A stretch of DNA of 64,000 bases, from positions 1 to 64,000 of the forward strand of contig NZ_LZRN01000021.1 in the NCBI RefSeq assembly GCF_001678675.1, in the 5' to 3' direction. Below, one piece after another: positions 36,206 to 51,743 of the stretch. Numbering within the stretch: the first letter of the stretch is position 1; each line of letters begins with the position of its first letter. The notes below the pieces were generated by a model. That model saw nothing but the letters and a program-made list of their open reading frames with translations. It did not search any database and was not told the origin of the DNA. This DNA comes from Gelidibacter algens. Its GTDB lineage: Bacteria > Bacteroidota > Bacteroidia > Flavobacteriales > Flavobacteriaceae. The translations under genes were made by a program, and so were the position numbers.

Positions 36206-36427
36206 ATGAAAGAGTTATCAGAGTTTGTAAAAGAGCGTAGAAAAGAAGTCGGTCTAACCCAAGAAGAGTTTGCAGATAGGGCAGGAGTTGCACTTACTGT
36301 AATCAGAAAAATAGAGCAGAACAAAACAAATTTAAATCTTGAAAAAGTGAATCAAGTTTTAAAAATGTTTGGACACAAACTTGTACCCGTAAGTTTAAAA
36401 GAAGTGAATGATAATGAGACAAGCTAA
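36206..36427 (+). CDS. hipB: HipB-like antitoxin, XRE-family HTH
   Basis: 73 residues from ATG 36206. The protein is almost entirely a helix-turn-helix domain: LSEFVKERRKEVGLTQEEFA, DRAGVALTVIRKIEQNKTN, then LNLEKVNQVLKMFGHKLVPV. This length and the phrase LEKVNQVLKMFGHKL are typical of HipB proteins that precede split HipA kinases in Bacteroidota. It overlaps the next gene by 20 bases. It would repress the operon and may hold the toxin complex at the operators. No Shine-Dalgarno sequence is present. Confidence 0.88.
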   Translation: MKELSEFVKERRKEVGLTQEEFADRAGVALTVIRKIEQNKTNLNLEKVNQVLKMFGHKLVPVSLKEVNDNETS

Positions 36428-36746
36428 AATATATTATGACAAGGTGTTTTGCGGTCTTTTAACTGAGACAAATGACGGCGATTTTACATTCAGATACGAT
36501 GGCGATTATATAAATCAATATCCTGAGCAGTTTATAACATTTTCAATGCCAGTAAATAATGCAGAATATAAAGATAAGCGGTTATTTCCTTTTTTTGAAG
36601 GCTTAATCCCAGAAGGATGGTTGTTGGATATTGCAGCAAGGAATTGGAAGATTAATAGAAACGACCGTATGGGATTACTGCTCGCATGTTGTAAGAACTG
36701 TATTGGAGCAGTAAGTGTTGAACCTGTAAATGAAAATCATGAGTAA
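36408..36746 (+). CDS. hipS: HipS-like small protein (HipA N-terminal domain)
   Basis: 112 residues from ATG 36408, or 110 from ATG 36414. It corresponds to the N-terminal subdomain of full-length HipA kinases: AKIYYDKVFCGLLTETNDGD, FTFRYDGDY, then FPFFEGLIPEGWLLDIAARN and DRMGLLLACCKNCIGAVSV. In E. coli O127 HipBST the separate small protein HipS, not HipB, neutralises the kinase HipT. The same gene order here suggests the same division of labour. It overlaps the genes on both sides (20 and 17 bases), which implies coupled translation. Confidence 0.82.
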   Translation: MIMRQAKIYYDKVFCGLLTETNDGDFTFRYDGDYINQYPEQFITFSMPVNNAEYKDKRLFPFFEGLIPEGWLLDIAARNWKINRNDRMGLLLACCKNCIGAVSVEPVNENHE

Positions 36747-37677
36747 ATGTTTGTATTGTTATAAAGAAGTTGATTCCGATGGTGACTTTCATGAGGCGTG
36801 TAGCTTATCTTTTTTTGGTACAGAAATACCACCAAAAATTGAATACGAATTAGATGAAATGTATGAATTGGCAAAACAGGTAATTGAGAGAAGTGTTTCA
36901 GTTCCAGGGGTACAACCAAAATTGTCAATGTCGGTATTAATAGATGATAGAACTCACAGTAGATTAACGGTGGTTGGTGCTTTAGGTGGGAATTACATTT
37001 TTAAGCCACCATCAACGGACTTTAAAGAGATGCCAGCAAATGAGCACTTGACGATGAAAATGGCAGCTCTATTTAGTATTGATGTTGTCCCAAATTCGCT
37101 TATTAAGTTGGCTTCTGGGGAATTGTCTTATATCACTAAGCGCATAGACAGAGCAGAAGACGGCGCTAAAATACATATGATTGATATGTTTCAGGTATTG
37201 GAAGCTTTCGACAAGTACCGAGGTTCGATGGAACGTATTGGAAAAGCTATTGAAGCACATGCAGCAAATACGCTTTTAGATAAGCTACGTTTTTTTGAAC
37301 TTGGTGTTTTTTCATATCTGACCGGAAATAACGATATGCATTTAAAAAACTTTTCGATGATAAAAACTTCTTATGGTTGGGCATTATCGCCAGCATATGA
37401 TTTATTAAATGTGAAAATTGTAAATCCAGAAGATACCGAGGAATTAGCATTAACAATTGCAGGAAGAAAGAAAAGAATAACACTTCAAAATTTTCTTGAT
37501 TTTGCTGAGGGTTTGCAGCTTTCTAAGAAACAGATCAATGGCGTTTTAAGACGTTTCAAAGAGTTACAACCGAGTGCTTTGAGCTTAATTGAAGCGTCCT
37601 TTTTGAGTGAGGAGATACAAGTCGGATACAGAAAAACTTTATTAAGTCGATATGAATTATTCAATTCAGAAATGTGA
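36730..37677 (+). CDS. hipT: HipT-like Ser/Thr kinase toxin (HipA C-terminal domain)
   Basis: 315 residues from ATG 36730 (or 36739). A zinc-ribbon-like start, KCLYCYKEVDSDGDFHEAC, is followed by the kinase core. Visible are the Gly/Ser loop SVPGVQPKLSMSVL near residue 60, NYIFKPP with the ATP Lys, PANEHLTMKMA, the catalytic loop TGNNDMHLKNFSMI near 200, and the metal-binding LSPAYDLLNVK near 222. HipA-type kinases phosphorylate aminoacyl-tRNA synthetases and stop growth, giving persistence; HipT acts on TrpS in E. coli. The target here is unknown. Adjacency to an integrase fits a mobile addiction or defence module. Intact. Confidence 0.88.
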   Translation: MKIMSKCLYCYKEVDSDGDFHEACSLSFFGTEIPPKIEYELDEMYELAKQVIERSVSVPGVQPKLSMSVLIDDRTHSRLTVVGALGGNYIFKPPSTDFKEMPANEHLTMKMAALFSIDVVPNSLIKLASGELSYITKRIDRAEDGAKIHMIDMFQVLEAFDKYRGSMERIGKAIEAHAANTLLDKLRFFELGVFSYLTGNNDMHLKNFSMIKTSYGWALSPAYDLLNVKIVNPEDTEELALTIAGRKKRITLQNFLDFAEGLQLSKKQINGVLRRFKELQPSALSLIEASFLSEEIQVGYRKTLLSRYELFNSEM

Positions 37678-38126: not shown

Positions 38127-39485
38127 TCAAATAGTGTGTCCTAATATGAGATAGATGATACACGTAATTCCTCCCGCAATCAGCGTATATGGTAATTGGG
38201 TCACCACATGGGCCACATTGTTGCACTCAGTGGCAGAAGCGGATAATATGGTGGCATCTCCGTAGAAACAGGCATGAGAGCCAAAAGCTCCTGCACTTAT
38301 AACTGATCCAATCGCCAACCAAATATCTACTCCCATGCTTTGTGCCAATGGAATTATAACAGGTAGTGATATGGCATAAACACCCCAAAAAGAACCTGTT
38401 GCAAAGGTTATAAGCGCTAGAGAAACAAATGCAATTACCGGTAGATATTCTTTGTTTAACCATGGGGATACACTCTCAATAACATAAGGTGTGAGTCCCA
38501 TTTGATCGTTTACATCTTTGAGAACAAAAGACATAGTCACGATGGCTAGGGCATAAAGCATGGTTTTAAAACCCTTGAAAACACCATCCATAGCCTGTGC
38601 AAATGACATTACCTTACTCATTGCAAAGTAGGCTACAGTAAACGCTATTGCAGTGATGACCCCTCTCAAGGCATCAATATCAAAATAAACGGTAGCACAG
38701 ATAAGTACTAAGATAGGAATTACAAAATATGAGAGTTTTGGTTCTTTATCCGATAAATATTCTGGTATTTCCAGACTTATAGTATCTGAATCTGGTGGTT
38801 TAAGTATTCCTTTTTTTGCCCTTTCCTCAGCCTTTTTCATAGCCCCTAAAGGTGGTATCAGATTGATTGCCACTAGCGGAACTAAAAAGGCTGCCACCCA
38901 GCCGTAGGTTATATATGGAATAGCTTGAAGGTAACCAGCTAAACCCTCACCTTGTGCCACCACGCCTTCACTTTCCAAAAGTCCAGAAATAAATATCGCC
39001 CAAGTGGATAAGGGTATAAGCACACAAACAGGGGCAGCAGTGGAGTCAACTATATATGCTAGCATCTCTCTAGGTACATTAAAACGATCAGTAACTTTTT
39101 TCATAGAACTACCTACTGTCAAAGCATTGAGGTAATCATCTATAAAGATACAAAGTCCCAATAACCATGTTGCAAGCAACGCCTCTTTCCGGGTTTTGAC
39201 AAATTTTAATAGATACCCAGAAAAAGCGTTTGTCCCACCTGATTGTGCCAATAGATAGATTAAAGATCCAAAAAGTCCACAAACCAAAATAACCCAACCA
39301 ATAGCGGCGTCTTGCATTACCAGCAGAAGAGAATTGGTAAAATCAGAAAATGAACTTTTATAGGAAATAATTACAAAACCTATAAACGATCCTCCTACTA
39401 GGGCCTCAAAGGTTTTTCTTGTGATCAATGCTAAAATTATTACAGTAACCGCGGGTACCAAACTGATAATGCCCCAATTTTGCAT
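38127..39485 (-). CDS. NhaC-family sodium/proton (or amino acid/amine) antiporter
   Basis: 452 residues with about 11-12 membrane segments. NhaC-type motifs include LLGLCIFIDDYLNALTVGSS near 110, VDSTAAPVCVLIPLSTWAIF, FATGSFWGVYAISLPVIIPL near 362 and SAGAFGSHACFYGDATILSA near 400. The family contains Na+/H+ antiporters and also malate/lactate and amino-acid exchangers. It is the last gene of a tight operon (5 bases after the serine hydrolase) with a deiminase and an aminotransferase, so it may import an amine, guanidino compound or peptide fragment rather than serve pH homeostasis. Intact. Confidence 0.88.
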   Translation of the reverse strand: MQNWGIISLVPAVTVIILALITRKTFEALVGGSFIGFVIISYKSSFSDFTNSLLLVMQDAAIGWVILVCGLFGSLIYLLAQSGGTNAFSGYLLKFVKTRKEALLATWLLGLCIFIDDYLNALTVGSSMKKVTDRFNVPREMLAYIVDSTAAPVCVLIPLSTWAIFISGLLESEGVVAQGEGLAGYLQAIPYITYGWVAAFLVPLVAINLIPPLGAMKKAEERAKKGILKPPDSDTISLEIPEYLSDKEPKLSYFVIPILVLICATVYFDIDALRGVITAIAFTVAYFAMSKVMSFAQAMDGVFKGFKTMLYALAIVTMSFVLKDVNDQMGLTPYVIESVSPWLNKEYLPVIAFVSLALITFATGSFWGVYAISLPVIIPLAQSMGVDIWLAIGSVISAGAFGSHACFYGDATILSASATECNNVAHVVTQLPYTLIAGGITCIIYLILGHTI

Positions 39486-39490
39486 ATCTT

Positions 39491-40801
39491 TTAATTTTTA
39501 GGAATTGCGTTCTGCTCTATTGTTTTGAGATAAGGAAAAACCGTTTGAAAAATATCTTCCTCGACTTGATAAAAGGTACTCTTTTCTCCATACTCAAATT
39601 TGTTTTTACTCCCGTTGGTTATAAAAATGATACCACTCCTTTTATCTTTTTCCAAATACATATCGCTCAGTAATCCATAGGCAATTCCAGGATGGCCTAC
39701 CATTTTCCTGTCCGGAAAAATGATGTCTCCGTTAGGTGTATTTGTTGTTTGATGTATGCCAATTCCGTAAGACAAAAAGAAGTTCTCCCAGGTGTCTCCG
39801 TTTTTACCATTATATTCCCATTGACTTTTCAACATAAAATCTACAGTTGCTTTTTCTAAAATTTGATTGTTATTATATGTGCCATCATTCATTAACATTA
39901 TTGCGATCGCAGACAAGTCTTTTGCAGAACTTCGGAGGCTACCTTGTGGCCCAAAAAGCAATCCATTTTGTCCTAGCTCATAACCTTCAAATGCACGGTT
40001 TTGGGGCAATTTGTCACTATAATCATCAGCCTGTGATATCCATTTTTCATCATCATAGGTATATAAGACAGCTAAAGAATCCAGATGCGTCAAATTGGCC
40101 ACGTTGAAATCGGCCTTGAGGGCCATAGGTTTAAAGATTTCTTTTCGACAGTAATTATCTAAGCGTTGCTGACTTACGTTCTCTATGACTGATGCTATAA
40201 TACCCCAAGAACAATTGGCGTATGAGAAATAGTCACCTGGTGAATGATCTGCAAACTGATCGTCCGTAAAATAACTTTCATTGCTCAAAAAAAGCTCCCT
40301 AATGTCTAATTTTTCAGATATCATATCGTTCGAAAAACGTTGGTACCCTTCACCATCCCTGATGCCACTTTGGTGACTCAATAATTGTTTTAAGGTAATG
40401 GGGATATCTGGAAATTTAGGGTTTCTTAAAGACCATCCCAAATAGTTGCTTATATCAGTATCGAGATCTACTTTACCATCTTCCCAAAGTTGCATTATGG
40501 CGATTGCAATTATTGTTTTTGAGATAGAAGCCACCCGATATATTGTATTTTCAGTAATAGGAATATGTTGAGACATATTTGCTTTTCCGAATGCACTATG
40601 CCAAGCAATTTTACCATCTGATAGAACTAGTACTGACATACCAACAAGCTCATTTTTAATAAAAACCTCCTCTAATTTATTTTTCAAGGCTATAGAATCC
40701 TTTTCATTTAGTAGAGCTTTCAAATCAGATTTTTCCTTACAAGAAACAACCATTATGAGCGACATTAAGAAAATGGTAAAAGTTAAACGAAATCTTTTCA
40801 T
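39491..40801 (-). CDS. Serine hydrolase of the beta-lactamase family, lipoprotein
   Basis: 436 residues. Lipoprotein signal MKRFRLTFTIFLMSLIMVVS with Cys21. Class C beta-lactamase / DD-peptidase fold: ASISKT (SxxK) near residue 94, IAIMQLWEDGKVDLDTDISN, LLSHQSGIRDGEGYQ, the Tyr motif DYFSYANCSWGI near 191 and a Gly-rich C-terminal strand (MVGHPGIAYGLLSDM). Related proteins include esterases, D-amino-acid peptidases and amidases. Its place between a deiminase lipoprotein and an antiporter suggests it trims an extracytoplasmic precursor so that a small amine can be taken up, but the substrate is unknown. It lies 9 bases after the deiminase. Confidence 0.85.
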   Translation of the reverse strand: MKRFRLTFTIFLMSLIMVVSCKEKSDLKALLNEKDSIALKNKLEEVFIKNELVGMSVLVLSDGKIAWHSAFGKANMSQHIPITENTIYRVASISKTIIAIAIMQLWEDGKVDLDTDISNYLGWSLRNPKFPDIPITLKQLLSHQSGIRDGEGYQRFSNDMISEKLDIRELFLSNESYFTDDQFADHSPGDYFSYANCSWGIIASVIENVSQQRLDNYCRKEIFKPMALKADFNVANLTHLDSLAVLYTYDDEKWISQADDYSDKLPQNRAFEGYELGQNGLLFGPQGSLRSSAKDLSAIAIMLMNDGTYNNNQILEKATVDFMLKSQWEYNGKNGDTWENFFLSYGIGIHQTTNTPNGDIIFPDRKMVGHPGIAYGLLSDMYLEKDKRSGIIFITNGSKNKFEYGEKSTFYQVEEDIFQTVFPYLKTIEQNAIPKN

Positions 40802-40810
40802 TTTTACTGA

Positions 40811-42202
40811 TTAATTTTTCGATTTTAATAAAGGTTCGTTCATTGTAATGCAATGAATACCTCCACCTCCAAAGTTGACAGCTAATGCATTAATCATGAC
40901 GATTTCACGTTCGGGAAATAATTTTTGTAATATGTCTCGCACTTCTTGATCTCTTTGAGCCACAATTTCATCCATCCCCTCTGAAAAATATTTTTGACCA
41001 ATCACGACCTTATCTGTAATCAAAAAATTTAAATAGCTGGCAGCGGCGATTACAGTGATTTCTTCACCCTTTGGAAAAACAGACCCGTCCTCAAAATTTA
41101 AACTACTTATAAAATCGTAAACTAAATCTCCAGGTTTCATTTGACCCAGAATAAGTTTAGGTAAAGGCATACGCACGATGTGGAAAGGTTTTCCGTTTTG
41201 ATCACTGGCTTTTTTAAGTATTTGATAGTTCTCTTCCATGCGCTTATGGTTTTCAGCCGCTACGGGATCGTTCATATCTTCTGGCTTTACAACGCCTAAC
41301 AGAATGGTGGAATCGTTGACAAACCGTGCAAATTCATCAGTATGGCCATTGGTGGTCACAGCTGTGTATGCTTGATTGCCATTCTCAAGTTGAATGGTTC
41401 CCTTAAAAGTATGATCGTCTTCCATTAATCCTTTCTTTAACCAAATAATCTTTTTGACGCCCAAAACTCTTTTAAATTCCAGCTCCATAGCCGCCAAATC
41501 CATATAAGGATTTCGACCTTTTTCCACAATTTCGGTCAGCATGAGAACACCTCTGCCGTTGAGCTCTCTATTTCCACCTTCGCTAACCATGTCAGAATAA
41601 ATAACAGGGATATTTAGTAATTTTGCTACCTCTTCATCGTATTTTTCCATACGGATGGTATAGTCATCCATGGCATTGCTATCCGTATAGCCCCAAGCAT
41701 TAAATCCAAAATCAACTATTGCCTTTTTACCGTTGGTCAGTTCCACAAAATTGGGACCCATATCTCTAATCCAGAATTCCTCAGAAGGAATTTTAACCAA
41801 TTTCACCCAGCCATTATCCAAATATGCCTTAGGTATAACATCTTGAGCCCTCCTAAAAAGAGTGTCATTTGCAACAGAGACCATAATGTGTTCTTTATTG
41901 ACTAAAGCATTTATAATTTCTAAAGTTACCTTTTCATTAGATTTACCATTAAGATGATCGTTTGGAGGCCAGATGAGCCAAATATTTTCCTGTGCTTCAT
42001 ATTCCGCAGGTTGTCTCAGGACTGTTACATCAGCGTCTACAGAGAATTTATTAGAAGGTCCTGGTTTACAATTGCTAATTGTTAAAAAAATCACGAGACA
42101 ACTGGCAATAACGCCTAGTCTTTCCAAATAGCCTTTAGTGCCCAAAAGTAATCTTCTGGAAAAGTGTTTTGAAATCCAAGATAAAAAGCAGCTTTTTTTC
42201 AT
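40811..42202 (-). CDS. Agmatine deiminase family lipoprotein
   Basis: 463 residues. After a basic, unusually long N-terminus a lipoprotein signal is plausible (VIASCLVIFLTISNC, Cys45). The guanidine-deiminase fold is complete: FWIRDMGPNFV at 143-153, GGNRELNGRG near 210, TNGHTDEFARF with His287, and the catalytic GGGGIHCITMNEP with Cys451. These match agmatine deiminase and bacterial peptidylarginine deiminase. It would convert agmatine to N-carbamoylputrescine and ammonia, or citrullinate arginine residues. The lipoprotein signal places it outside the cytoplasm, unlike typical AguA. Its ATG overlaps the aminotransferase stop by four bases. Confidence 0.85.
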   Translation of the reverse strand: MKKSCFLSWISKHFSRRLLLGTKGYLERLGVIASCLVIFLTISNCKPGPSNKFSVDADVTVLRQPAEYEAQENIWLIWPPNDHLNGKSNEKVTLEIINALVNKEHIMVSVANDTLFRRAQDVIPKAYLDNGWVKLVKIPSEEFWIRDMGPNFVELTNGKKAIVDFGFNAWGYTDSNAMDDYTIRMEKYDEEVAKLLNIPVIYSDMVSEGGNRELNGRGVLMLTEIVEKGRNPYMDLAAMELEFKRVLGVKKIIWLKKGLMEDDHTFKGTIQLENGNQAYTAVTTNGHTDEFARFVNDSTILLGVVKPEDMNDPVAAENHKRMEENYQILKKASDQNGKPFHIVRMPLPKLILGQMKPGDLVYDFISSLNFEDGSVFPKGEEITVIAAASYLNFLITDKVVIGQKYFSEGMDEIVAQRDQEVRDILQKLFPEREIVMINALAVNFGGGGIHCITMNEPLLKSKN

Positions 42203-43600
42203 AGGTGACCCTCCTTATGCAACGTGGTTACAGTTTCCAATATACTGTCTTTTAAAATACCGATGGTCTCATCTATAGCATCTTTATCATAAGTCAATGG
42301 AGGAGAAAGTACATTTAATGGGCCAATGGGCCTAATAATCAAACCTCTCTTTTTCGATGCAGTGTATATTCTTTTACCAATATTAACTTCCATTGGAAAG
42401 GAGGTCTTGGTTTTTTTATCGGTCACATATTCCAGAGCCAACATAAAATGACTTCCACGCACCTCACCTACAATCGGTAAATCTTCTAAGGTTGTAAGTT
42501 GTTCCTTAAAATAAGGACCCCATTTATTGACATGCTCACAGAAGCCATCGCGCTCCAGGATTTCAATATTTTTAAGCCCTGTTGCACATGCAAGAGCATG
42601 GCCGGAGTAAGTAAAGCCATGAGAAAAATAAGGATTGTCGGCTTTGGGTCGTGAAATTACCTCATGCATTGCTGAAGAAATTACGGTAGCTCCTAAAGGA
42701 ACGTAACCCGATGAAAGTCCCTTGGCTAATACCATTATATCAGGCTGAACCTTAAACATTTCTTTGGAAGTAATCATTTTTCCCAAACGCCCAAAAGCGG
42801 TAACTACTTCGTCGGCTATGGTTAGAATTTCATATTTTTTACACAATGCGTAGGCTTTTCCAAGATATCCTTCTGGGGCAACAATTACACCACCAGCACC
42901 CATGATGGGTTCTGCAATGAAACAGGCAATGTTATCAGCACCAATCTCGATAATTTTAGTTTCCATCTCATCAATTAGATAATCACAATATGAATGACTA
43001 TCAATCCCTTCAGGTTTTCGGTAAGGATAGGGGGTAGGATAGGTAAGTGATATCATCCTTTGGCAGATCAAAGCCGATATGTGTAGAAGCTATTCCAGTA
43101 AGTGCGTGTGCTAAATACGTACTGCCGTGATACCCTAAATTGCGTGAAAGGATTTTCTTTTTTTTAGGTTTCCCCAACATGTTAAAATAATAATGAACCA
43201 TTTTAATCGCTGTATCATTTGCCATAGAGCCCCCTGTTCCAAAAAAAACATGATTAAGTGTTCCTGGACATAGAGAGGCCAATTTTGCCGCTAAATTTGC
43301 GGCTGAAGGGGAGGTGGAGTCCTCAAAGGTATTATAGTAGGCCAAGTTTCTAGCCTGTTCTCCAATATGTGCAGCCAACTCTTCATTACCGTGTCCTATG
43401 TTTACACACCAGAGTCCAGCAATTCCATCTAAATATTTTTGCCCTTGTTGGTCATAAATAAAGTGTCTGTGTCCTTTGGCATATACAGTAGATCCTTCTT
43501 TTGAAAAGTTTTCGAAATTGGCATAGGGGTGAATGACATGGTTTTTATCATTTCTCCAAGTTAATTCTAAATCTTGATTAGGATTTAAACTTTTATGCAT
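42199..43600 (-). pseudogene. Class III aminotransferase, one-base shift in a G5 run
   Basis: ATG 43600 opens HVIHPYANFENFSKEGSTVY, DQQGQKYLDGIAGLWCVNIG, FFGTGGSMANDTAIKMVHYY and NLGYHGSTYLAHALTGI. The frame ends at 43010. The shifted frame, from about 43033, continues PYPYRKPEG, AEPIMGAGGVIVAP, DEVVTAFGRLG, the PLP lysine in VLAKGLSSGYVPLGATV and FTYSGHALACATGL to 42199. One C seems missing from a C run (G5 at 43029-43033 on the plus strand). Joined, it is about 466 residues, like beta-alanine-pyruvate or putrescine-pyruvate aminotransferases. It heads the operon with the deiminase, serine hydrolase and antiporter, and lies divergent from the Lrp gene. The shift may be a sequence error. Confidence 0.85.
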
Positions 43601-43699
43601 GCTACAAGGATTTTAAATTGTTGATCTCACAAGAAAGTAATTGTCAGAATGCAAGTAAAGCAATAAAATGCAATTTAGTAACTAAAAATAAGAAAAAAA

Positions 43700-43738
43700 T
43701 GCATAATTATATTGTTTAATTGTATATTTTGCATAATA
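43700..43738. promoter_or_regulatory. Spaced TGCATAAT repeats, Lrp operator candidate
   Basis: TGCATAAT occurs at about 43700 and 43730, thirty bases (three helical turns) apart, in very AT-rich DNA between the divergent aminotransferase and Lrp/AsnC genes. This spacing suits an Lrp-type octamer. Confidence 0.45.
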
Positions 43739-43780
43739 TTGATAAATGGAACGTGTTACAAATAAAATGATTCTTGAATT

Positions 43781-44284
43781 GTGAAAGAGAGCAAATTTGA
43801 ATTTAGTGTCACCGATAAGGCCTTATTGCAATTTTTTAAAAGAGATGGAAGGATGTCTTTTACTGATATCGCATCTGAACTTAAATTGTCGGTATCTACG
43901 GTAAGAAACCGATATAATAAGCTTGTGGAAGAAGGAGTTCTTCATATTCTGGGCTGGGTGGATCCCACCAAAACAGGCTTTAATTCATACAACAGAGTAA
44001 CCATTGAAGTTAGCCCGTCCAACTTGATTGATTCCGTGGCAGACGAATTGATGAAAATTAAGGAAATATCCTTCCTAGCGCTTACATCTGGACCTTCAGA
44101 TATAGAGATTAATTTAATTTGTAGGGATAATAGACATCTTTTGGATGTAATGAAAAAAAACATCTTTACTATTCCAGGAGTAAAAAACACACAATCAACA
44201 ATATACTATAATGTTTATAAATGGGCTGATCACGAAATGAATATTGAATTACCAGCATCTCCATTGGACTCTAAAAAAACATAA
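43781..44284 (+). CDS. Lrp/AsnC family transcriptional regulator
   Basis: 167 residues from GTG 43781; no in-frame ATG is close. N-terminal HTH: DKALLQFFKRDGRMSFTDIA, SELKLSVSTVRNRYNKLVEE. The C-terminal AsnC effector domain (about 70-150) has VTIEVSPSNLIDSVADELM, FLALTSGPSDIEINLICRDN and IPGVKNTQSTIYYNVYK. Lrp-type proteins sense amino acids or related metabolites. Placed between the two operons and just ahead of the carboxypeptidase-like hydrolase (11 bases), it probably controls both in response to an amine or amino acid of the pathway. Intact. Confidence 0.9.
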   Translation: MKESKFEFSVTDKALLQFFKRDGRMSFTDIASELKLSVSTVRNRYNKLVEEGVLHILGWVDPTKTGFNSYNRVTIEVSPSNLIDSVADELMKIKEISFLALTSGPSDIEINLICRDNRHLLDVMKKNIFTIPGVKNTQSTIYYNVYKWADHEMNIELPASPLDSKKT

Positions 44285-44295
44285 ATCTCATCTAA

Positions 44296-45543
44296 ATGCT
44301 TAGAATAAACGGCAACAGATTATGCGAAAAACTTTTTGAGATGGCTAAGATTGGAGCGACCACTAAAGGCGGAGTGTGCCGTGTTGCTTTAACAGAACAA
44401 GACAAGTTAGGACGAGACTTATTTATAAAATGGTGTTTGGAAATTGATTGTGTAGTTGATATTGATCAACTGGGAAACATCTTTGCGAGACGCTTGGGAA
44501 GGAACAATGCCGCTCCGGCCGTTATGATTGGAAGCCATTTGGACTCTCAGCCAACTGGAGGCAAATATGATGGTGTTTTAGGGGTGTTGGCTGGCCTGGA
44601 AGTACTTCATACGCTGCATGATGCCAATATTGTCACCGATGTACCACTAGAAATTGTGTCTTGGACCAATGAAGAAGGTGCAAGATTTTCTCCCGCAATG
44701 GTTGCTTCTGGGGTATTTGCTGGTGAATTCAGTTTGGACTTCGCATACAATAGAGAAGATAAAGTGGGCACGAAGCTACTTGATGCGTTAGTGGAAATTG
44801 GTTATAAAGGGAAGAGTGAAGTGGGAAATAGAAAATATAAAGCCACTTTTGAACTTCACATAGAGCAAGGTCCAATTTTAGAAGCTGCGAAAAAATCAGT
44901 AGGTATTGTAACAGGTGTTCAAGGTATTCGCTGGTATAATCTCCTTCTCAATGGAAAAGAGACCCATGCAGGACCTTCCCCTATGAGCTTTAGAAAAGAT
45001 CCTATGCTAACGCTATCGAGACTTTTACCAAGAATTTTCGAACTTACCAAAATACATGGTCCAGACGCCAAAGTGACTGTCGGGTATATCAACGCCTTTC
45101 CTGGGGTTAGAAATACAGTTCCGGGATACTTGGATATTTCCGTGGACATGAGACATCCATGTGAAGAAATTCTTTTCAAAATGCATCAAGATTTGACAGC
45201 AATAGTCAATGTTGAAAAACATATTGATCAAGACGTTGGCCATCTTGAACTTGTCTGGTATTCCCCTCCAGTAATGTTTGATACCGGATGTATTGAAGCT
45301 GTCAAAAAAGCAACGGAGAAACTAGCTATCCCCTCAATGGAAATTGTTAGTGGTGCTGGACATGATGCCGTGTATATTTCCAAAGTAGCACCTACTAGTA
45401 TGATTTTTATTCCCTGTACCGATGGCCTGAGTCATAACGAATTGGAACATGCGGAAAAGGTAGATATTATTAACGGTACTAATGTATTATTGGCAGCGGT
45501 ACTAGAAATGGCAAATGACTGTGATTTGGAATTTAGAAACTAA
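44296..45543 (+). CDS. M20-type N-carbamoyl amidohydrolase (hydantoinase/carbamoylase family)
   Basis: 415 residues. Metal and substrate motifs of the carbamoylase / beta-ureidopropionase / allantoate amidohydrolase group: GSHLDSQPTGGKYDGVLG near 75, WTNEEGARFSPAM near 124, ELHIEQGPIL near 190, the dimerisation loop GKETHAGPSPMSFRKD near 217, and GAGHDAVYISKVAPTSMIFI with GLSHNELE near 355-385. It hydrolyses the ureido group of N-carbamoyl compounds to amine, CO2 and ammonia. With a deiminase, an aminotransferase and an aldehyde dehydrogenase around it, N-carbamoylputrescine is an attractive substrate, although that step is normally done by nitrilase-family AguB. N-carbamoyl amino acids or beta-ureidopropionate remain possible. 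Confidence 0.9.
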   Translation: MLRINGNRLCEKLFEMAKIGATTKGGVCRVALTEQDKLGRDLFIKWCLEIDCVVDIDQLGNIFARRLGRNNAAPAVMIGSHLDSQPTGGKYDGVLGVLAGLEVLHTLHDANIVTDVPLEIVSWTNEEGARFSPAMVASGVFAGEFSLDFAYNREDKVGTKLLDALVEIGYKGKSEVGNRKYKATFELHIEQGPILEAAKKSVGIVTGVQGIRWYNLLLNGKETHAGPSPMSFRKDPMLTLSRLLPRIFELTKIHGPDAKVTVGYINAFPGVRNTVPGYLDISVDMRHPCEEILFKMHQDLTAIVNVEKHIDQDVGHLELVWYSPPVMFDTGCIEAVKKATEKLAIPSMEIVSGAGHDAVYISKVAPTSMIFIPCTDGLSHNELEHAEKVDIINGTNVLLAAVLEMANDCDLEFRN

Positions 45544-45556
45544 ACATTAACGTATC

Positions 45557-47050
45557 ATGAAAGCAAAAATCCAACATGCAGAATTGTCTCCCAAAACCAA
45601 ACAATTTTTGGACACACCTCCACGGATGTTAATTGGAAATGAATGGGTTAAAAGTCTATCCAATAAAACCTTTGATACAGTAAACCCCGCCGATGGTAAA
45701 GTCATCCTTCAAATACCCTTAGCTGACAAACGCGATATTGATGCAGCGGTAGTGGCAGCCAGACATGCTTTTAAAACCACATGGAAAGATGGGGTAAGTC
45801 CCACACAAAGAGCAGAGCTCTTATGGGATCTTGCCCGGCTTATGGAGAGAGATTTGCAGGTATTTATGGAACTTGAAACGCTTGATAATGGAAAACCCTT
45901 GTCTAAATCTAAATATGATGTACTGGGTGCAATCAACCATTTAAAATATTACGCGGGGTGGGTGACCAAAATAAATGGAAGCACAGTTCCGGTTGGATCA
46001 AATAAATTGGTCTATACAAAAAAAGAAGCTTTGGGGGTCGTGGGTCTAATTGTTCCATGGAATTTTCCACTTATGATTTCCATGTGGAAACTTGCCCCTG
46101 CTTTAGCTTGCGGAAATTGTTGCATACTCAAACCCTCAGAACTGACACCACTCTCAGCGCTTTATCTGGGTCATCTTATTATTGAAGCGGGTTTTCCGGC
46201 GGGTGTAGTCAATATTGTTACAGGAGAAGGAAGTCCTGCCGGAGAAGCAATTTGCCATCATATGGATGTCGATATGGTTAGTTTTACAGGATCTACAGTG
46301 GTAGGAAGAAAAATAATGGAAGCTGCCGCTCAAAGCAATTTGAAAAAGATCAGTTTGGAACTGGGAGGCAAATCACCCAATGTAATATTTGATGATGCTG
46401 ATTTAGAAAAAGTGTTTGAAAATCTGCAATGGAGCAGCTTTTACAATACTGGTCAGGAATGTACTTTGGGATCTAGAATTTATGTACAGCAATCAATTTT
46501 TGACAAGACGGTCGCAAATTTGAAGGAAAAAGCTGAAAAGATGACTATGGGTAACGGTTTTGACGACCATGATCTTGGCCCTATGATCAGTGAAAAACAG
46601 TTGTCAAACGTCATGGATTATATTGATTCAGGTAAAAAGGAAGGCGCTGTATTGGTATGTGGCGGTAAGCGCATCTTTGCAAATCTTAGAGATGGTTATT
46701 TTTTAGAACCAACAATATTTACCAGTCAAAGTGACGGTTTAAGAATTGTCAAGGAAGAAATTTTTGGGCCTGTTGTGGTCATCTTGCCTTTTAATGACTT
46801 CGATGATGCGATACTAAAGGCCAATAATTCTTCATATGGACTTGCAGCTGCCGTTTGGACCCAGGATTTATCAAAGGCCCACAATTTTGCAAATAAGGTT
46901 GACGCTGGCACCGTATGGGTGAATGGCTATGATCTTTTTGATGCTGCCGTTCCCTTTGGAGGTTTTAAACAAAGTGGAAATGGAAAAGAAATGGGAGTTA
47001 ATGCAATTGATCAGTTTACCAAAGAAAAAGCCGTATGGATTGTACTTTGA
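45557..47050 (+). CDS. NAD(P)-dependent aldehyde dehydrogenase
   Basis: 497 residues, full length. Motifs: FDTVNPADGKVI near 38, IVPWNFPLMISMWKLAPALA near 165, SFTGSTVVGRKI near 243 (cofactor binding), the general base in LELGGKSPNVIF near 272, the catalytic Cys in FYNTGQECTLGSRIYV near 300, and EEIFGPVVVILPF near 400. It is closest in pattern to betaine-aldehyde, aminobutyraldehyde and phenylacetaldehyde dehydrogenases. In this locus 4-aminobutanal, formed by the aminotransferase, is the likely aldehyde, giving GABA. It follows the carbamoylase by 13 bases in the same operon. Intact. Confidence 0.92.
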   Translation: MKAKIQHAELSPKTKQFLDTPPRMLIGNEWVKSLSNKTFDTVNPADGKVILQIPLADKRDIDAAVVAARHAFKTTWKDGVSPTQRAELLWDLARLMERDLQVFMELETLDNGKPLSKSKYDVLGAINHLKYYAGWVTKINGSTVPVGSNKLVYTKKEALGVVGLIVPWNFPLMISMWKLAPALACGNCCILKPSELTPLSALYLGHLIIEAGFPAGVVNIVTGEGSPAGEAICHHMDVDMVSFTGSTVVGRKIMEAAAQSNLKKISLELGGKSPNVIFDDADLEKVFENLQWSSFYNTGQECTLGSRIYVQQSIFDKTVANLKEKAEKMTMGNGFDDHDLGPMISEKQLSNVMDYIDSGKKEGAVLVCGGKRIFANLRDGYFLEPTIFTSQSDGLRIVKEEIFGPVVVILPFNDFDDAILKANNSSYGLAAAVWTQDLSKAHNFANKVDAGTVWVNGYDLFDAAVPFGGFKQSGNGKEMGVNAIDQFTKEKAVWIVL

Positions 47051-47073
47051 GAAGCCAGCTTTCCACTTTACAG

Positions 47074-47253
47074 TCAGTGCGTGGAGAGGGAATATATCCA
47101 CACGACATGAATGATAACCAATACTTAAATTTTATCTCAAGCCTTGGAGTTGCAAATACAGGTATTCAAAGAGCAGATAAAGCAGGCTTTGGAAATTTTG
47201 AAAAGGGAGTATCAAAACAGTATTACCCTGAAACACCATGCCTAATTAAGTAA
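47074..47253 (+). pseudogene. N-terminal relic of a second class III aminotransferase
   Basis: The frame reads SVRGEGIYPHDMNDNQYLNF, ISSLGVANTG, which resembles the start of acetylornithine/GABA-type aminotransferases (VRGEGIYL.D..G..YLDFISGLGV..LGH). It then passes into an unrelated-looking tail (GFGNFEKGVSKQYYPETP) and stops. Only about 60 codons remain directly behind the aldehyde dehydrogenase. A GABA transaminase would be the next step of the proposed pathway, but the match is short. Confidence 0.4.
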
Positions 47254-47301
47254 TTAAAAAATTTTTAAAATTATGTAGTTCATTTAAATATGATCACATA
47301 T

Positions 47302-47338
47302 ATCAAATATTAACACGCAACAATAATCAAATATTAAC
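47302..47338 (+). promoter_or_regulatory. Direct repeats ATCAAATATTAAC upstream of the SusC gene
   Basis: ATCAAATATTAAC at 47302-47314 and 47326-47338, 24 bases apart, just before the SusC gene start at 47356. A regulator site or promoter element is likely; which protein binds is unknown. Confidence 0.4.
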
Positions 47339-47355
47339 TTGAATCTTAAATAATT

Positions 47356-50300
47356 ATGGAAAAAAAATCAATTAGTTTCTTATTGTTCTTTATCATGGCT
47401 TCGGTTGTTGCTATGACGTATGGGCAAAGTATTTCAGGTACGGTAACAGATCCATCTGGTCTTCCATTAATAGGCGTAAATGTTCTGGTCAAAGGAACTT
47501 TTAATGGAACTCAGACTGATTTTGACGGAAAATATTCCATAGAAGCACGCACGTCAGATGTGCTGGTGTTTTCTTTTATAGGCCAAAAAACGGTAGAGCG
47601 CAACGTAGAAAATAACACAACCATTAATGTGCAAATGGAAGAAGACGCTGCGCAATTGGAAGAAATTGTAGTTATCGGTTATGGTAGCCAGAAGAAAAGC
47701 GATCTTACTGGATCTGTGGCTAGTGTTAATGGTGAAGATATTGCCAGACTGCCAGTGTCAAGTTTGGACAAAGCCCTCCAAGGGAGGGCTGCAGGTGCTT
47801 ATATCAGTTCTCCTTCAGGAACGCCTGGGGCTGGTATGAGCATACAAATTAGAGGGAGTACCTCCTTGTCTGCCAGTAGTGAACCCTTATATGTCATCGA
47901 CGGCGTTCCAATGATTTCCGAAGATCTCTCTGGATTGTTTTCTGGGGGACAAAAAACCAATTCAATTGCTGATATCAATCCGAATGACATTAAAGCGATT
48001 GAAATTCTTAAGGATGCCTCCGCAACGGCCATATATGGTTCAAGAGGTGCTAATGGTGTTATTATCATCACCACTAAAAGAGGTCAAACAGGGGCTCCAA
48101 AAATTAATTTCAATAGTTATTACGGTTTTCAAACCATCACCAATCAAATTGATATGTTAAGTTCAAAAGAACAACTGGAACTTATGGATGAGGCTGCACG
48201 TCAAGATAATAGAGATTTGGGTACTAACTATCCTGATAATTACGTGTCTGATCTTTGGGGCTATGATCCTAACGATCCTGATTTACAAAACACAGATTGG
48301 TACGATGCTATTTTTAGAACAGCAGCCATTCAAAATCAAGATTTTTCAATTTCTGGGGGTACTGATAAGATCAAATATTACACATCACTTGCCTACTTTG
48401 AACAAGAAGGCACCCAACTGGGGACAGGATTCGAGCGTCTCAGTGCAAGAGCTAATTTAGATAGTGAAATTAATACGTGGCTTAAGATAGGCACAACCAT
48501 TTCCGTAAGCCGAACCAATCAGCAGCGTACTATTAATGACAACTCACTTTATGGTGTTGTTATAAACACCTTGGCAGGTGATCCCTTAATGCCCGTAAGA
48601 GAAGAAGATGGCAGCTATGCTGATCCATTCAACTATTTTGGTTGGTGGATGCTCGACAATCCAGTGCTTGTAGCTGAGGAATATAAAAGAACTACCAAAA
48701 CGGTTAGAGGCTTAGGGACTATTTTCGCAGAAATTTCTTTAACTGATGCGCTCTCTTTTAGACATTCTACGTCAATTGATTATACGAGTTTGGTAGATGA
48801 GTCCTACACCCCGATTATTTCGAGGGAATCGGTCAACTCAGGAGCTAATGGTCTTGGAACCTATGGTTCTACTGAAGATTTTACATGGATTACTGAAAAT
48901 TACTTCTCCTACAATAAGAATTTTGGAGATAAGCATAATCTGGACGCTATCGTCGGCATCTCATACCAAGCTTCAAATAGAAATTTTGCAAGTATTAGCG
49001 CACAACAATTTCCAAGTGATCAGTTTGTAAAATTAGCCACCGCCGCCGAGATTACTGCAGCTTCCACCGCAGGAACAGAATGGGGTCTTGCTTCTTACTA
49101 TTTTAGAGCTAATTATGGGTATGATAATAAATATTTGCTGACTTTTTCCGGACGTGCTGATGGATCTTCTCGCTTCGGGCAAAATAACCGATTTGGAATT
49201 TTCCCATCTGGTTCTGTAGCATGGCGCATAAGCCAAGAAGATTTCCTCAAAGAATCCGAGACTATTTCTGATTTGAAGTTGAGAGTTAGTTATGGCGTCA
49301 CTGGTAATCAGGATGGTATAGGCAACTTTGCATCGCGAGGCTTGTATGGCATAGGAAATTACCGTTCTGGTGCAACTTTGGTTCCATCTCAATTAAGCAA
49401 CCGAAATTTGAGTTGGGAAAGAACAACCCAATATAATTTTGGAATGGATTTAGGGCTATTTAACAATAGGTTGACATTAACCACAGATTACTTTATAAAA
49501 GACACAGATGATTTATTGTCGAGCAGATTAATACCAGGGATTTCAGGATTTCCTAGCGTTCTTGATAATATAGGTGCGGTAACAAATAAAGGATTTGAGC
49601 TGTCCATAAGCGGAGATGTTCTAAGAGGCGATTTCAACTGGAATTCTTCATTCAACATATCATTTATTCGTAATGAAGTTAAAAACCTTGTGGTTGATGA
49701 TCAAATAATTAGCGATTCTCACATTCTTAAGGAAGGCTATCCTATTGGAACATTTTTCTTGATTGATCAAAAAGGAGTAGATCCTCAAACAGGAAACATA
49801 ATATGGGATGATTTCAATGGAGATGGTATTATAAATGCTGATGATCGCCAAATCGTTGGGAGTGTGCAGCCGGACTTCTTTGGAGGTTTTAATAATGCTT
49901 TTAGCTATAAAGGCCTCGATCTTAGTTTTCTCTTCCAATTTTCAGTGGGGAACGAAATTTTTAACCATAGTAGAGCAATTTACGAAGGTTTGGGATGGAG
50001 CCGCATAGGAACTGGATTTCCGTTGCCTGATGGCAATAACCATGTGTTGGCACGGGACCGTTGGCAGGAGCCAGGAGATATTACTGATATTCCGAGGGCT
50101 TCATTAGAAGATGGTAACTGGAAGGAATATTCATCACGCTGGCTAGAGGACGGATCTTTTGTTCGACTTAAAACCGTGAACCTAGGTTATAACTTCCCAG
50201 ATCAAATTCTTTCTAAATTAAATTTATCGAACTTAAGGGTATACGTCCAAGGACAAAATCTTTTGACATTTACCAAATATACTGGATTTGATCCAGAGGT

Positions 50301-50397
50301 CAGCCAAAATGCACGGGATCCAAGAATTGCCGGATCAGACTTTGGGACTTTGCCACAGAGCAAAAGCTATACATTAGGGATTAACATCGGACTTTAA
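47356..50397 (+). CDS. SusC/RagA family TonB-linked outer-membrane protein
   Basis: 1013 residues. Signal peptide to about 24 (VAMTYGQ). The regulatory-like domain (26-100) has SISGTVTDPSGLPLIGVNVL and TDFDGKYSIEA, then VVIGYGSQKKSDLTGSVASV (TonB box and plug start). The plug has LDKALQGRAAGAYISS, IRGSTSLSASSEPLYVIDGV and SRGANGVIIITTKRGQTG. The barrel ends SKSYTLGINIGL. It pairs with the SusD-type gene 11 bases downstream. Following the carbamoylase and aldehyde dehydrogenase genes, it would import the compound degraded by the locus or a precursor such as a peptide. Intact. Confidence 0.95.
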   Translation: MEKKSISFLLFFIMASVVAMTYGQSISGTVTDPSGLPLIGVNVLVKGTFNGTQTDFDGKYSIEARTSDVLVFSFIGQKTVERNVENNTTINVQMEEDAAQLEEIVVIGYGSQKKSDLTGSVASVNGEDIARLPVSSLDKALQGRAAGAYISSPSGTPGAGMSIQIRGSTSLSASSEPLYVIDGVPMISEDLSGLFSGGQKTNSIADINPNDIKAIEILKDASATAIYGSRGANGVIIITTKRGQTGAPKINFNSYYGFQTITNQIDMLSSKEQLELMDEAARQDNRDLGTNYPDNYVSDLWGYDPNDPDLQNTDWYDAIFRTAAIQNQDFSISGGTDKIKYYTSLAYFEQEGTQLGTGFERLSARANLDSEINTWLKIGTTISVSRTNQQRTINDNSLYGVVINTLAGDPLMPVREEDGSYADPFNYFGWWMLDNPVLVAEEYKRTTKTVRGLGTIFAEISLTDALSFRHSTSIDYTSLVDESYTPIISRESVNSGANGLGTYGSTEDFTWITENYFSYNKNFGDKHNLDAIVGISYQASNRNFASISAQQFPSDQFVKLATAAEITAASTAGTEWGLASYYFRANYGYDNKYLLTFSGRADGSSRFGQNNRFGIFPSGSVAWRISQEDFLKESETISDLKLRVSYGVTGNQDGIGNFASRGLYGIGNYRSGATLVPSQLSNRNLSWERTTQYNFGMDLGLFNNRLTLTTDYFIKDTDDLLSSRLIPGISGFPSVLDNIGAVTNKGFELSISGDVLRGDFNWNSSFNISFIRNEVKNLVVDDQIISDSHILKEGYPIGTFFLIDQKGVDPQTGNIIWDDFNGDGIINADDRQIVGSVQPDFFGGFNNAFSYKGLDLSFLFQFSVGNEIFNHSRAIYEGLGWSRIGTGFPLPDGNNHVLARDRWQEPGDITDIPRASLEDGNWKEYSSRWLEDGSFVRLKTVNLGYNFPDQILSKLNLSNLRVYVQGQNLLTFTKYTGFDPEVSQNARDPRIAGSDFGTLPQSKSYTLGINIGL

Positions 50398-50408
50398 AAA
50401 CTTTTAAA

Positions 50409-51743
50409 ATGAAAAATATATATATAACACTTTTCGCATTTTTGTTCATGCTGTCCTGTGACATTCTCGAACCAGAACCATTACAGTCGTTAGATTCTAG
50501 CACCGCTCTTGCAGATGCCGGGTCTGCAAAAGGAATTTTGGCGGGAGCCTATACACTTTTGCAGGATGCAGATTATTATGGCTCGGAATATCCATTGAAT
50601 TCTGAACTTCTTGCCGACAACGCGATTTTTCAAGGATTTTATCAGTCACAATCAGAATTAGACCAGAAATTAGTGCCTATCACTAATTTATGGATTACGA
50701 CCATTTGGCCTGATATTTATATAGTTGTCAATTCTGCAAATCTTTTGATAGCTGGGGTTGATGATATAGACGATCCAGCACTTGACAAAGATGCTATAAA
50801 AGGAGAAGCCTATGCTCTAAGAGCGCTGGCCAATTTTGACTTGCTTAGGGTTTTTGGAGAACATTTTGACAATTCGTCGCAATTTGGTATTCCGTTGCTT
50901 TTGGAGCCAATCCCAGATAATGATTTCAATCAAATACCAGATTTGGCCCGCAGTTCTGTCGAAGATGTTTATGATCAAATCATTAGTGATTTAGATCAAG
51001 CCATTGCCTTGACCGAAGGAAGTAGTGATACTTCAACCATGAACTATTGGGCCGCCCTTAGCTTGCGTGCACGAGTAAATCTTTATAGAGGCGAATATGG
51101 TCAAGCCTTTATAGATGCCAAAAAAGTGATTACTGAGGGTGGTTTCAGCTTGGAAGAAAATTTGGACGATGTGTTCTACACTACAGATGCATCAGCTGAA
51201 TCGATCTTTGAGTTGGAGTTTAATGAACAAGACCAGAGTGCCTTTAACACTTATCTTTATAGAAGGGATGAATATAACGTTGATCCTACTTTACTCAGTT
51301 CATTTGAGACAGGAGATTTGAGAAAAAATTATTTTACGAGACTTAGAGGGCGCAATCGTACTACTAAATATTCTGACAATACAAATTCAAATAATTTCAA
51401 AATCTTCCGATTGGCAGAATTATATCTTATCCGTTCAGAAGCTGCAGTCTTTGCAACTAATGATCCTGATGCGGGTACCGAAGATCTAAACACGATAAGA
51501 AACAGAGCAGGGTTAGATGATCTTGCTCCAATTTTGACCACCTCTCAATATGTCGATGCGTTATTATACGAAAGAAGAGCTGAGCTTAACTTTGAGGGGC
51601 ATCGGTTTTTTGATCTAGTCCGTTTGGGGAAGGCTGAGAGTGTTCTCGGTTTGGAAGCATTTAGGAAAGTGTTGCCTATTCCACGAACAGAACTTCAAGT
51701 TTCTGATGCTTTAGTTCAAAACCCTGGGTATCCTAGTAATTGA
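50409..51743 (+). CDS. SusD/RagB family nutrient-binding lipoprotein
   Basis: 444 residues. Lipoprotein signal MKNIYITLFAFLFMLSC with Cys17, then DILEPEPLQSLDSSTALADA. SusD motifs: KGEAYALRALANFDLLRVFG near 128 (the conserved ALRA..YFDL pattern), ARVNLYRGEYGQAF, FRLAELYLIRSEAA near 335, and LNTIRNRAGL with LLYERRAELNFEGHRFFDLV and LGKAESVLG near 385-420, typical for the RagB/SusD family. Surface-exposed partner of the preceding SusC. A strong bidirectional hairpin follows. Intact. Confidence 0.93.
   Translation: MKNIYITLFAFLFMLSCDILEPEPLQSLDSSTALADAGSAKGILAGAYTLLQDADYYGSEYPLNSELLADNAIFQGFYQSQSELDQKLVPITNLWITTIWPDIYIVVNSANLLIAGVDDIDDPALDKDAIKGEAYALRALANFDLLRVFGEHFDNSSQFGIPLLLEPIPDNDFNQIPDLARSSVEDVYDQIISDLDQAIALTEGSSDTSTMNYWAALSLRARVNLYRGEYGQAFIDAKKVITEGGFSLEENLDDVFYTTDASAESIFELEFNEQDQSAFNTYLYRRDEYNVDPTLLSSFETGDLRKNYFTRLRGRNRTTKYSDNTNSNNFKIFRLAELYLIRSEAAVFATNDPDAGTEDLNTIRNRAGLDDLAPILTTSQYVDALLYERRAELNFEGHRFFDLVRLGKAESVLGLEAFRKVLPIPRTELQVSDALVQNPGYPSN

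What the first reader, a model, noticed from the sequence alone, without database searches (positions are those of the whole stretch)
38127..51743. Possible complete agmatine-to-GABA locus using an M20 carbamoylase, with its own SusC/SusD importer
Seen: one divergon around an Lrp/AsnC gene holds an agmatine-deiminase-family lipoprotein (WIRDMGP, GGGGIHC), a class III aminotransferase, an M20-type N-carbamoyl hydrolase (HIEQGP, GHDA), an aldehyde dehydrogenase, an NhaC-type antiporter, a serine hydrolase and SusC/SusD, plus a relic like a second aminotransferase. Known: deiminase gives N-carbamoylputrescine, removal of the carbamoyl group gives putrescine, transamination gives 4-aminobutanal and dehydrogenation gives GABA. 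Inference: the locus runs this route, with an M20 enzyme replacing nitrilase-family AguB and the first step outside the cytoplasm. Alternatives are catabolism of N-carbamoyl amino acids or citrullinated peptides.
Basis: partly seen in the sequence, partly recalled or inferred. Interest (0 to 1): 0.75.

Follow-up and report, generated by a model that had tools for sequence, protein, structure and literature searches.

The report
Conserved agmatine-to-GABA breakdown gene cluster
This stretch carries most of a gene set, kept together in distantly related Bacteroidota, that probably breaks down the arginine product agmatine to the common metabolite GABA, possibly by an unusual order of steps; this is predicted from sequence and not yet tested.

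Summary
In detail: all named genes lie at the given coordinates. New: the class III aminotransferase (AT1) is split by a frameshift, and the 'relic' is the start of a second, GABA-transaminase-like aminotransferase (AT2), intact in relatives. The cluster (AT2)-ALDH-M20-Lrp / AT1-deiminase-serine hydrolase-NhaC recurs in nine loci from four family-level groups with correlated divergence, so it is a real unit. SusC was seen in two of the nine.

Agmatine is the likeliest substrate: sister deiminases sit beside an AguB-like nitrilase. That M20 replaces AguB is not supported: M20 keeps the carboxylate-binding Arg in 8 of 8 loci; a characterised relative hydrolyses N-carbamoyl-GABA; five of eight M20-cluster genomes have separate AguA and AguB homologues; the window's genome has an agmatinase operon, so this locus looks catabolic.

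Preferred model: exported deiminase makes N-carbamoylputrescine, which is imported; AT1 and ALDH oxidise its free amine end to 4-ureidobutyrate; M20 then releases GABA. This is Puu-like, with carbamoyl as protecting group. All substrate assignments are inferred. New variant of a known kind.

The parts
38127..39485 (-). NhaC-family (PF03553) transporter; proposed importer of N-carbamoylputrescine
   Evidence: 57-93% pairwise identity over seven loci; a homologue (43-44%) also lies near the AguB-linked deiminases in L066-L068. Substrate inferred
39491..40801 (-). PF00144 serine hydrolase with an N-terminal Cys as of a lipoprotein (SxxK, YxN, HxG; motif names recalled); role unknown, perhaps frees a guanidino compound from a conjugate
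   Evidence: present in 8 of 9 loci (not seen in L064)
40811..42202 (-). PF04371 agmatine-deiminase-like protein (DEIM), export signal by eye; proposed agmatine to N-carbamoylputrescine outside the cytoplasm
   Evidence: clade apart from AguA. The Cys of a lipobox is preceded by Asn here, and L046 has no such Cys, so 'lipoprotein' is less sure than 'exported'
42199..43600 (-). Class III aminotransferase AT1, split by a frameshift (ORFs 43010-43600 and 42199-43071); proposed to transaminate the free amine of N-carbamoylputrescine
   Evidence: one ORF in the 8 other loci; best model NF005447 in the 4 of 8 intact copies scanned, 596.8-664.9 bits, 3 of 4 over the cut-off of 618
43781..44284 (+). 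Lrp/AsnC-family regulator, divergent from AT1
   Evidence: at this place in 8 of 9 loci (not seen in L046)
44296..45543 (+). M20 carbamoylase; proposed 4-ureidobutyrate (N-carbamoyl-GABA) to GABA
   Evidence: E126, Q191, R286, H380 equal Glu131, Gln196, Arg291, His385 of RrCbAA (PMC10952681)
45557..47050 (+). Aldehyde dehydrogenase; proposed 4-ureidobutanal to 4-ureidobutyrate
   Evidence: GQECTL motif in 7 of 7; higher BLAST score with E. coli PuuC than with PatD in 7 of 7
47050..47250 (+). Relic of second aminotransferase AT2 (GABA-transaminase-like)
   Evidence: E 2e-9 to L046 AT2; AT2 intact at this place in L046, L064, L065, L079, L081
47356..50397 (+). SusC/RagA TonB-dependent transporter, accessory to the cluster
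   Evidence: TIGR04056, 972 bits; homologue 67% identical over 855 aa beside the L046 cluster
50409..51743 (+). SusD-like lipoprotein, presumed partner of SusC

Best explanation
The locus is a slightly decayed copy of a conserved catabolic cluster for agmatine (or an agmatine conjugate). The exported deiminase turns agmatine into N-carbamoylputrescine outside the cytoplasm; the NhaC-type transporter brings this in; AT1 transaminates its free amine to 4-ureidobutanal; the ALDH oxidises that to 4-ureidobutyrate (N-carbamoyl-GABA); the M20 enzyme removes the carbamoyl group to give GABA; AT2, where present, sends GABA to succinate semialdehyde. It works like the E. coli Puu pathway, with carbamoyl instead of gamma-glutamyl as protecting group. 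Shown: gene content, conserved linkage, correlated divergence, catalytic and ligand-binding residues. Inferred: every substrate, the order of steps and the transport step.
For: Nine loci keep the set. Pairwise identities of DEIM, M20, ALDH, NhaC and AT1 correlate at r 0.83-0.99 over 15-21 locus pairs (pairs are not independent). AT1 orthologue in 8 of 8 M20-cluster genomes and 0 of 8 others. Agmatine: in L066-L068 a sister deiminase is followed, 24 bp on in L067 and L068, by a nitrilase whose best model is AguB (311 bits in L067, cut-off 410, next best 124), as high as the AguA-linked AguBs of these and related genomes (295-330 bits), and which has a Glu at the MtCPA Glu187 spacing, 29 residues after the catalytic Cys, in 3 of 3 (role of Glu187 from PMC4812014). 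The deiminase lacks the carboxylate-binding Arg pair of PPAD, judged by spacing from the conserved Asp. M20: carboxylate-binding Arg in 8 of 8, and the relative RrCbAA hydrolyses N-carbamoyl-gamma-aminobutyrate. ALDH scores higher with PuuC, which acts on an N-blocked aminobutyraldehyde, than with PatD in 7 of 7. AT2 resembles GABA transaminases and PuuE. In the AguB variant neither AT1 nor the PuuC-like ALDH is in the cluster, and no AT1 orthologue is elsewhere in those three genomes (best 33-34%), as expected if AT1, ALDH and M20 form one module.
Against: No activity is known for any member. The role of the serine hydrolase (8 of 9 loci) is unexplained. The Asp that binds agmatine's amine in plant AIH (Asp220) cannot be placed with certainty in the deiminase because of a loop insertion: the residue four before the catalytic His is Thr (Asp or Glu in AguA), though an acidic pair precedes the insertion. 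The six AguB homologues of the phylum read have their Glu three residues further on, so the Glu187 argument rests on the plant enzyme alone. PuuC against PatD is weak evidence (all identities 36-42%). The M20 Arg is also in the five closest solved structures, so it may only mean no change. The AguB variant comes from one genus, and its ALDH and transaminase (SSADH- and GABA-T-like) would also fit 4-guanidinobutyrate. AT1 is frameshifted in the window, so the route may be broken there.
Confidence: 0.45

Rival explanations
1. One reading: the M20 enzyme hydrolyses N-carbamoylputrescine to putrescine, then AT1 and ALDH give GABA. M20 would be a further non-homologous N-carbamoylputrescine amidohydrolase besides AguB and AguY.
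For: The same gene set fits; AguB and M20 occupy alternative clusters with related deiminases; AguY shows that such replacement happens (PMC12283126, passages read). In the window's genome and two others (G256, G216) no AguB was found at E 1e-40.
Against: Carboxylate-binding Arg in 8 of 8 cluster M20s; five of eight M20-cluster genomes have separate AguA and AguB homologues; in the AguB variant AT1 and the PuuC-like ALDH are missing from the cluster, though this order would still need them.
Confidence: 0.2
2. The substrate is 4-guanidinobutyrate: the deiminase gives 4-ureidobutyrate, M20 gives GABA, a transaminase and the ALDH give succinate.
For: M20 specificity fits directly; in L067 the cluster holds only GABA-T-like and SSADH-like enzymes after the hydrolase.
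Against: AT1, present in 9 of 9 M20 loci, would have no step; the linked nitrilase has a Glu at the place of the amine-holding Glu187 in 3 of 3; the deiminase lacks the PPAD carboxylate Arg pair.
Confidence: 0.15
3. Another guanidino compound (an arginine-containing peptide, citrullinated peptide, or other guanidino acid) is taken up by SusC/SusD, cut by the serine hydrolase and degraded through an N-carbamoyl amino acid.
For: Conserved serine hydrolase with a lipoprotein-like N-terminus; SusC in two loci; M20 relatives act on N-carbamoyl amino acids.
Against: No PPAD-type Arg pair in the deiminase; linkage of sister deiminases to an AguB-type nitrilase.
Confidence: 0.2

Closest known systems
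E. coli Puu pathway (puuA-E, puuP, puuR)
   Same: Works alike under the preferred model: N-protected putrescine, an ALDH similar to PuuC (38-42% identity), removal of the protecting group, GABA transaminase (five cluster AT2s 37-41% to PuuE), transporter and regulator in one cluster (the pathway's chemistry is recalled)
   Different: Protecting group would be carbamoyl, left by the deiminase, so no ligase; transaminase instead of PuuB oxidase; M20 instead of PuuD; first step exported
AguA-AguB agmatine deiminase pathway
   Same: Deiminase of PF04371; N-carbamoylputrescine proposed as product
   Different: Deiminase is in a clade separate from AguA; carbamoyl group proposed to leave last, by an M20 enzyme
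AguA-AguY pathway (PMC12283126)
   Same: Non-AguB hydrolase linked to an agmatine deiminase
   Different: AguY is a different, amidase-type protein; no M20 enzyme was mentioned in the passages read
N-carbamoyl-beta-alanine amidohydrolase (M20; RrCbAA, 8c46)
   Same: Same family, catalytic residues and carboxylate-binding Arg
   Different: Genomic context is a deiminase/aminotransferase cluster, not pyrimidine degradation
Porphyromonas peptidylarginine deiminase
   Same: PF04371, exported
   Different: Lacks the Arg152/Arg154 pair that binds the peptide carboxylate (placed by spacing)

Membership tests
AguA agmatine deiminase (TIGR03380) | score over curated cut-off | tested here: not met
   189.6 against 381.8 bits; but the AguA-type protein of L084, beside an AguB homologue, also fails it (301.6), so the cut-off is strict for this phylum
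AguA agmatine deiminase (TIGR03380) | catalytic Cys, His and guanidine-binding Asp residues | tested here: met
   WxRDxGP, GHxDE and GGGG[IL]HC in 12 of 12 deiminases (9 M20 clusters, 3 AguB variants)
AguA agmatine deiminase (TIGR03380) | acidic residue that holds the amine of agmatine (MtAIH Asp220) | tested here: inconclusive
   loop insertion at this place
AguA agmatine deiminase (TIGR03380) | activity on agmatine | not testable with these tools
   needs assay
Peptidylarginine deiminase of PPAD type | Arg pair binding the substrate carboxylate (22 and 24 residues after Asp130) | tested here: not met
   Ala169 and Gly171 in the window; F[ND]xWG in 12 of 12; by spacing, no alignment with PPAD was run
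AguB N-carbamoylputrescine amidase | nitrilase family (PF00795) | tested here: not met
   the cluster hydrolase is M20
M20 hydantoinase/carbamoylase (TIGR01879) | score over curated cut-off | tested here: met
   395.8 against 204 bits
M20 N-carbamoyl-(omega)-amino acid hydrolase | Glu131, Gln196, His385 and carboxylate-binding Arg291 of RrCbAA | tested here: met
   E126, Q191, H380, R286; R286 in 8 of 8
M20 N-carbamoyl-(omega)-amino acid hydrolase | activity on 4-ureidobutyrate | not testable with these tools
   needs assay; reported for the relative RrCbAA
Putrescine aminotransferase / class III omega-aminotransferase | PF00202 and substrate specificity | tested here: inconclusive
   PF00202 met by both pieces; best model NF005447 has no named substrate
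Aminobutyraldehyde dehydrogenase (PRK13473, TIGR03374) | score over curated cut-off | tested here: not met
   478.7 against 615 and 384 against 909 bits
PuuC gamma-glutamyl-aminobutyraldehyde dehydrogenase (PRK09847) | score over curated cut-off | tested here: not met
   441.5 against 850 bits; the comparison with PuuC is of likeness, not membership

The most novel reading that the evidence does not exclude
A Puu-like agmatine catabolic pathway in Bacteroidota in which the carbamoyl group left by an extracytoplasmic deiminase acts as a free protecting group: N-carbamoylputrescine is oxidised at its amine end to 4-ureidobutyrate, and only then does an M20 enzyme release GABA. It would give an enzymatic source for 4-ureidobutyrate, a metabolite seen in stool and urine metabolomes.
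Probability: 0.42. Interest if true: 0.72.

Novelty: new variant of a known kind. Interest (0 to 1): 0.58.

Why it matters
It would add a route from agmatine to GABA that bypasses putrescine, avoids free 4-aminobutanal and needs no ligase for protection, with the first step outside the cytoplasm. It would suggest functions for at least six conserved gene families in Bacteroidota, and could correct readings of such loci as putrescine synthesis or allantoate degradation. 4-Ureidobutyrate is reported in human stool and urine metabolomes (single passages in PMC6356708, filed there under pyrimidines, and PMC12221752), and neither passage names a source for it.

Tried and rejected
The 'allantoate amidohydrolase' name of the best M20 model was not followed as a function: the closest solved relatives are named deacylase, amidohydrolase, carbamoylase-family amidase or N-carbamoyl hydrolase. 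M20 R272 (VRNTV) was first considered as the carboxylate-binding Arg; the numbering against 8c46 puts that role on R286, and R272 is variable (Q in L046, I in L079-L081). Absence of AguA/AguB in the own genome was not used as evidence, since 251 of 299 family genomes have no match to the deiminase at E 0.001. Plasmid search: 67 records, all under 60% identity; the 25 listed are 25-29% identical, those with annotation naming AguA or agmatine deiminase; neighbourhoods were not looked at. A structure prediction of the deiminase was unfinished and is not used. Ureidobutyrate-bromophenols of red algae surfaced in a search (in PMC9322897 the only hit was in its reference list) but nothing links them to this locus. 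Paper searches for the proposed pathway listed no description of it, as far as titles and starts of abstracts show: 3 of 3 listed; 20 of 20; 15 of 56; 20 of 228; 1 of 1; wider ones: 11 (20 of 38), 65 (20 of 222). Only open-licence PMC papers were searched. Notebook entries hold early, looser figures (M20 Arg '5/5', orphan identity '52-56%', 'HigB'); the report's figures replace them, and HigB was not checked by any search.


Full report
OBSERVATION. Gaps inside the arms are -4 to 13 bp, except 305 bp before SusC. AT1 is broken by a frameshift between about 43016 and 43047, in a stretch that holds a run of five C; in this 140-contig draft a sequencing error cannot be excluded. The relic after the ALDH is the start of a second aminotransferase, AT2.

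CONSERVATION. The deiminase, or a relative of it, was sought in 299 family genomes (48 with a match at E 0.001; 8 with 48% identity or more, the own genome included), 395 of the class (10 at E 1e-40), 395 of the phylum (11) and twice in 195 of another class (9 and 8; by their lists the same class); the sets overlap. 44 stretches were fetched for neighbourhoods: 16, 9, 15, 4. L042 and L061 look like the same place, L024 (3.2 kb) was not annotated, and about two tables were lost in a cut output. With the window, nine loci hold the M20 type of cluster: window, L040, L046, L055 (cut at both ends), L064, L065, L079, L080 (contig ends after M20), L081. Order: (AT2)-ALDH-M20-Lrp on one arm, AT1-DEIM-SerHyd-NhaC on the other. 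Exceptions: no Lrp ORF seen in L046; no serine hydrolase seen in L064; NhaC and the serine hydrolase swapped in L065; no AT2 beside L040; AT2 relic in the window; ALDH and AT2 not assessable in L055 and L080. SusC was seen near the cluster in the window and L046 only (67% identical over 855 aa). The carriers fall in four family-level groups: f1 (three genomes), f90 (three), f109 (two) and a MAG labelled Flammeovirgaceae; only the last is named. Pairwise identities of five proteins over seven loci correlate at r 0.83-0.99, which indicates joint inheritance, although locus pairs are not independent. An AT1 orthologue (59% identity or more) was found in 8 of 8 M20-cluster genomes searched, at the cluster, and in 0 of 8 comparison genomes (best 37%).

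VARIANTS. In L066-L068 (three genomes of one genus) a sister deiminase (42-43% to the window's) is followed by an AguB-like nitrilase on the same strand and stands divergent to an ALDH, NhaC and, further on, a transaminase (the transaminase lies outside the L068 stretch). In L067 the nitrilase scores 311 bits with TIGR03381 (cut-off 410; next model 124), the ALDH is nearest SSADH, and the transaminase nearest GABA transaminases. The nitrilase has a Glu 29 residues after the catalytic Cys in 3 of 3, the spacing of Cys158 and Glu187 in the Medicago enzyme, whose Glu187 holds the substrate amine (PMC4812014, passages). The six AguB homologues of the phylum read (L083, L084, L085, L087, L088, L089) have their Glu three residues later, so this match is to the plant enzyme. 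The variant ties the deiminase family to N-carbamoylputrescine, hence to agmatine. In other relatives (L041-L045, L056-L063) the deiminase stands without an M20 or AT1 gene in the stretch read, up to about 10 kb each side and less where contigs end.

IS IT AN AguA/AguB REPLACEMENT? The own genome has no other PF04371 match and no AguB above 82.7 bits. It has an arginine-decarboxylase-like gene (169.9 bits, cut-off 369) followed by an agmatinase above cut-off (229.8 against 174.3) and an ORF that looks like deoxyhypusine synthase by eye. Of the eight M20-cluster genomes searched, five (G861, G1005, G1039, G1079, G1107) have a separate AguA-type match in an open frame of 357-389 aa and a 302-330-bit AguB homologue; three (G000, G256, G216) have no AguB at E 1e-40. 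AguA and AguB are neighbours in G861 and G1005; in the other three they are on different contigs. None of the AguB matches in the 16 genomes passes the curated cut-off, so this cut-off is strict for the phylum. The cluster therefore coexists with AguA/AguB homologues and looks catabolic. In a tree of 30 sequences the deiminases of this kind split from the four AguA with 100/99 support, and the M20-cluster members are not one clade (at least 2 changes), with orphan genes among them; long branches make parts unsure.

ORDER OF STEPS. The R. radiobacter M20 enzyme binds the substrate's carboxylate with Arg291 and the carbamoyl group near Glu131, Gln196 and His385 (PMC10952681, passages). The alignment to its sequence (8c46) puts window E126, Q191, R286 and H380 there, all with the same offset. 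R286 is present in 8 of 8 cluster M20s; the neighbouring R272 is not conserved. The same Arg is in all five closest solved structures shown. The characterised enzyme is more active on N-carbamoyl-gamma- than on N-carbamoyl-alpha-aminobutyrate. So the M20 enzyme fits N-carbamoyl-GABA better than N-carbamoylputrescine. For N-carbamoyl-GABA to arise from N-carbamoylputrescine, AT1 and ALDH must act first. AT1 overlaps DEIM by 4 bp in the window. The ALDHs score higher with E. coli PuuC (aldehyde with blocked amine) than with PatD (free amine) in 7 of 7, though all identities are 36-42%, and the window's ALDH passes neither curated cut-off. The five enzymes then fill five steps from agmatine to succinate semialdehyde. 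Where the window lacks AT2, the own genome has a GABA-transaminase-like gene elsewhere (471.1 bits with TIGR00700, cut-off 506.65).

WHAT IS NOT EXPLAINED. The serine hydrolase (8 of 9 loci) and SusC/SusD suggest that the natural substrate may be a conjugate. The amine-binding Asp of AguA cannot be aligned with certainty. The transporter's substrate is inferred from position only.

NOVELTY. [quoted passage not shown] The chemistry of the Puu pathway is recalled, with gene names from the E. coli record. No description of a route through 4-ureidobutanal or of an M20 enzyme in agmatine catabolism showed in the listings of searches, of which 48 and 64 were seen in part; they cover open-licence PMC papers only.

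CHANGES AT CHECKING. The number of family-level groups was corrected from five to four; the Glu position in other AguBs, the failed PuuC cut-off and the AguA cut-off caveat were added.

Noticed in passing
L041-L045, L056-L062: Orphan deiminases of this kind (51-55% identical to the window's) in Arenibacter and other Flavobacteriaceae, with no M20 or AT1 gene in the stretch read; what they do is unknown.
   Followed up: partly
L052:1906-10862: A more distant deiminase relative lies convergent with SusC, SusD, a gene that by eye looks like an isoaspartyl peptidase and one like a YfcC transporter; this could be uptake of beta-aspartyl-arginine from cyanophycin.
   Followed up: no
L090:7544-9877 (own genome, contig C15): GABA-transaminase-like gene directly beside a nitrilase-family protein of unclear function that scores 85 bits with the AguB model (cut-off 410).
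   Followed up: partly
window 36408-37677: Two overlapping ORFs that by eye resemble the two parts of a HipA-type kinase, just outside the cluster.
   Followed up: no
window 35159-36067: ORF that by eye resembles a tyrosine recombinase, a possible sign of mobility next to the locus.
   Followed up: no
L086 (G710:C56) and G049:C11:237538-242804: A further nitrilase paralogue of the AguB family lies 3-4 kb from a class III aminotransferase (33-37% to AT1); perhaps a pyrimidine or beta-alanine locus.
   Followed up: no
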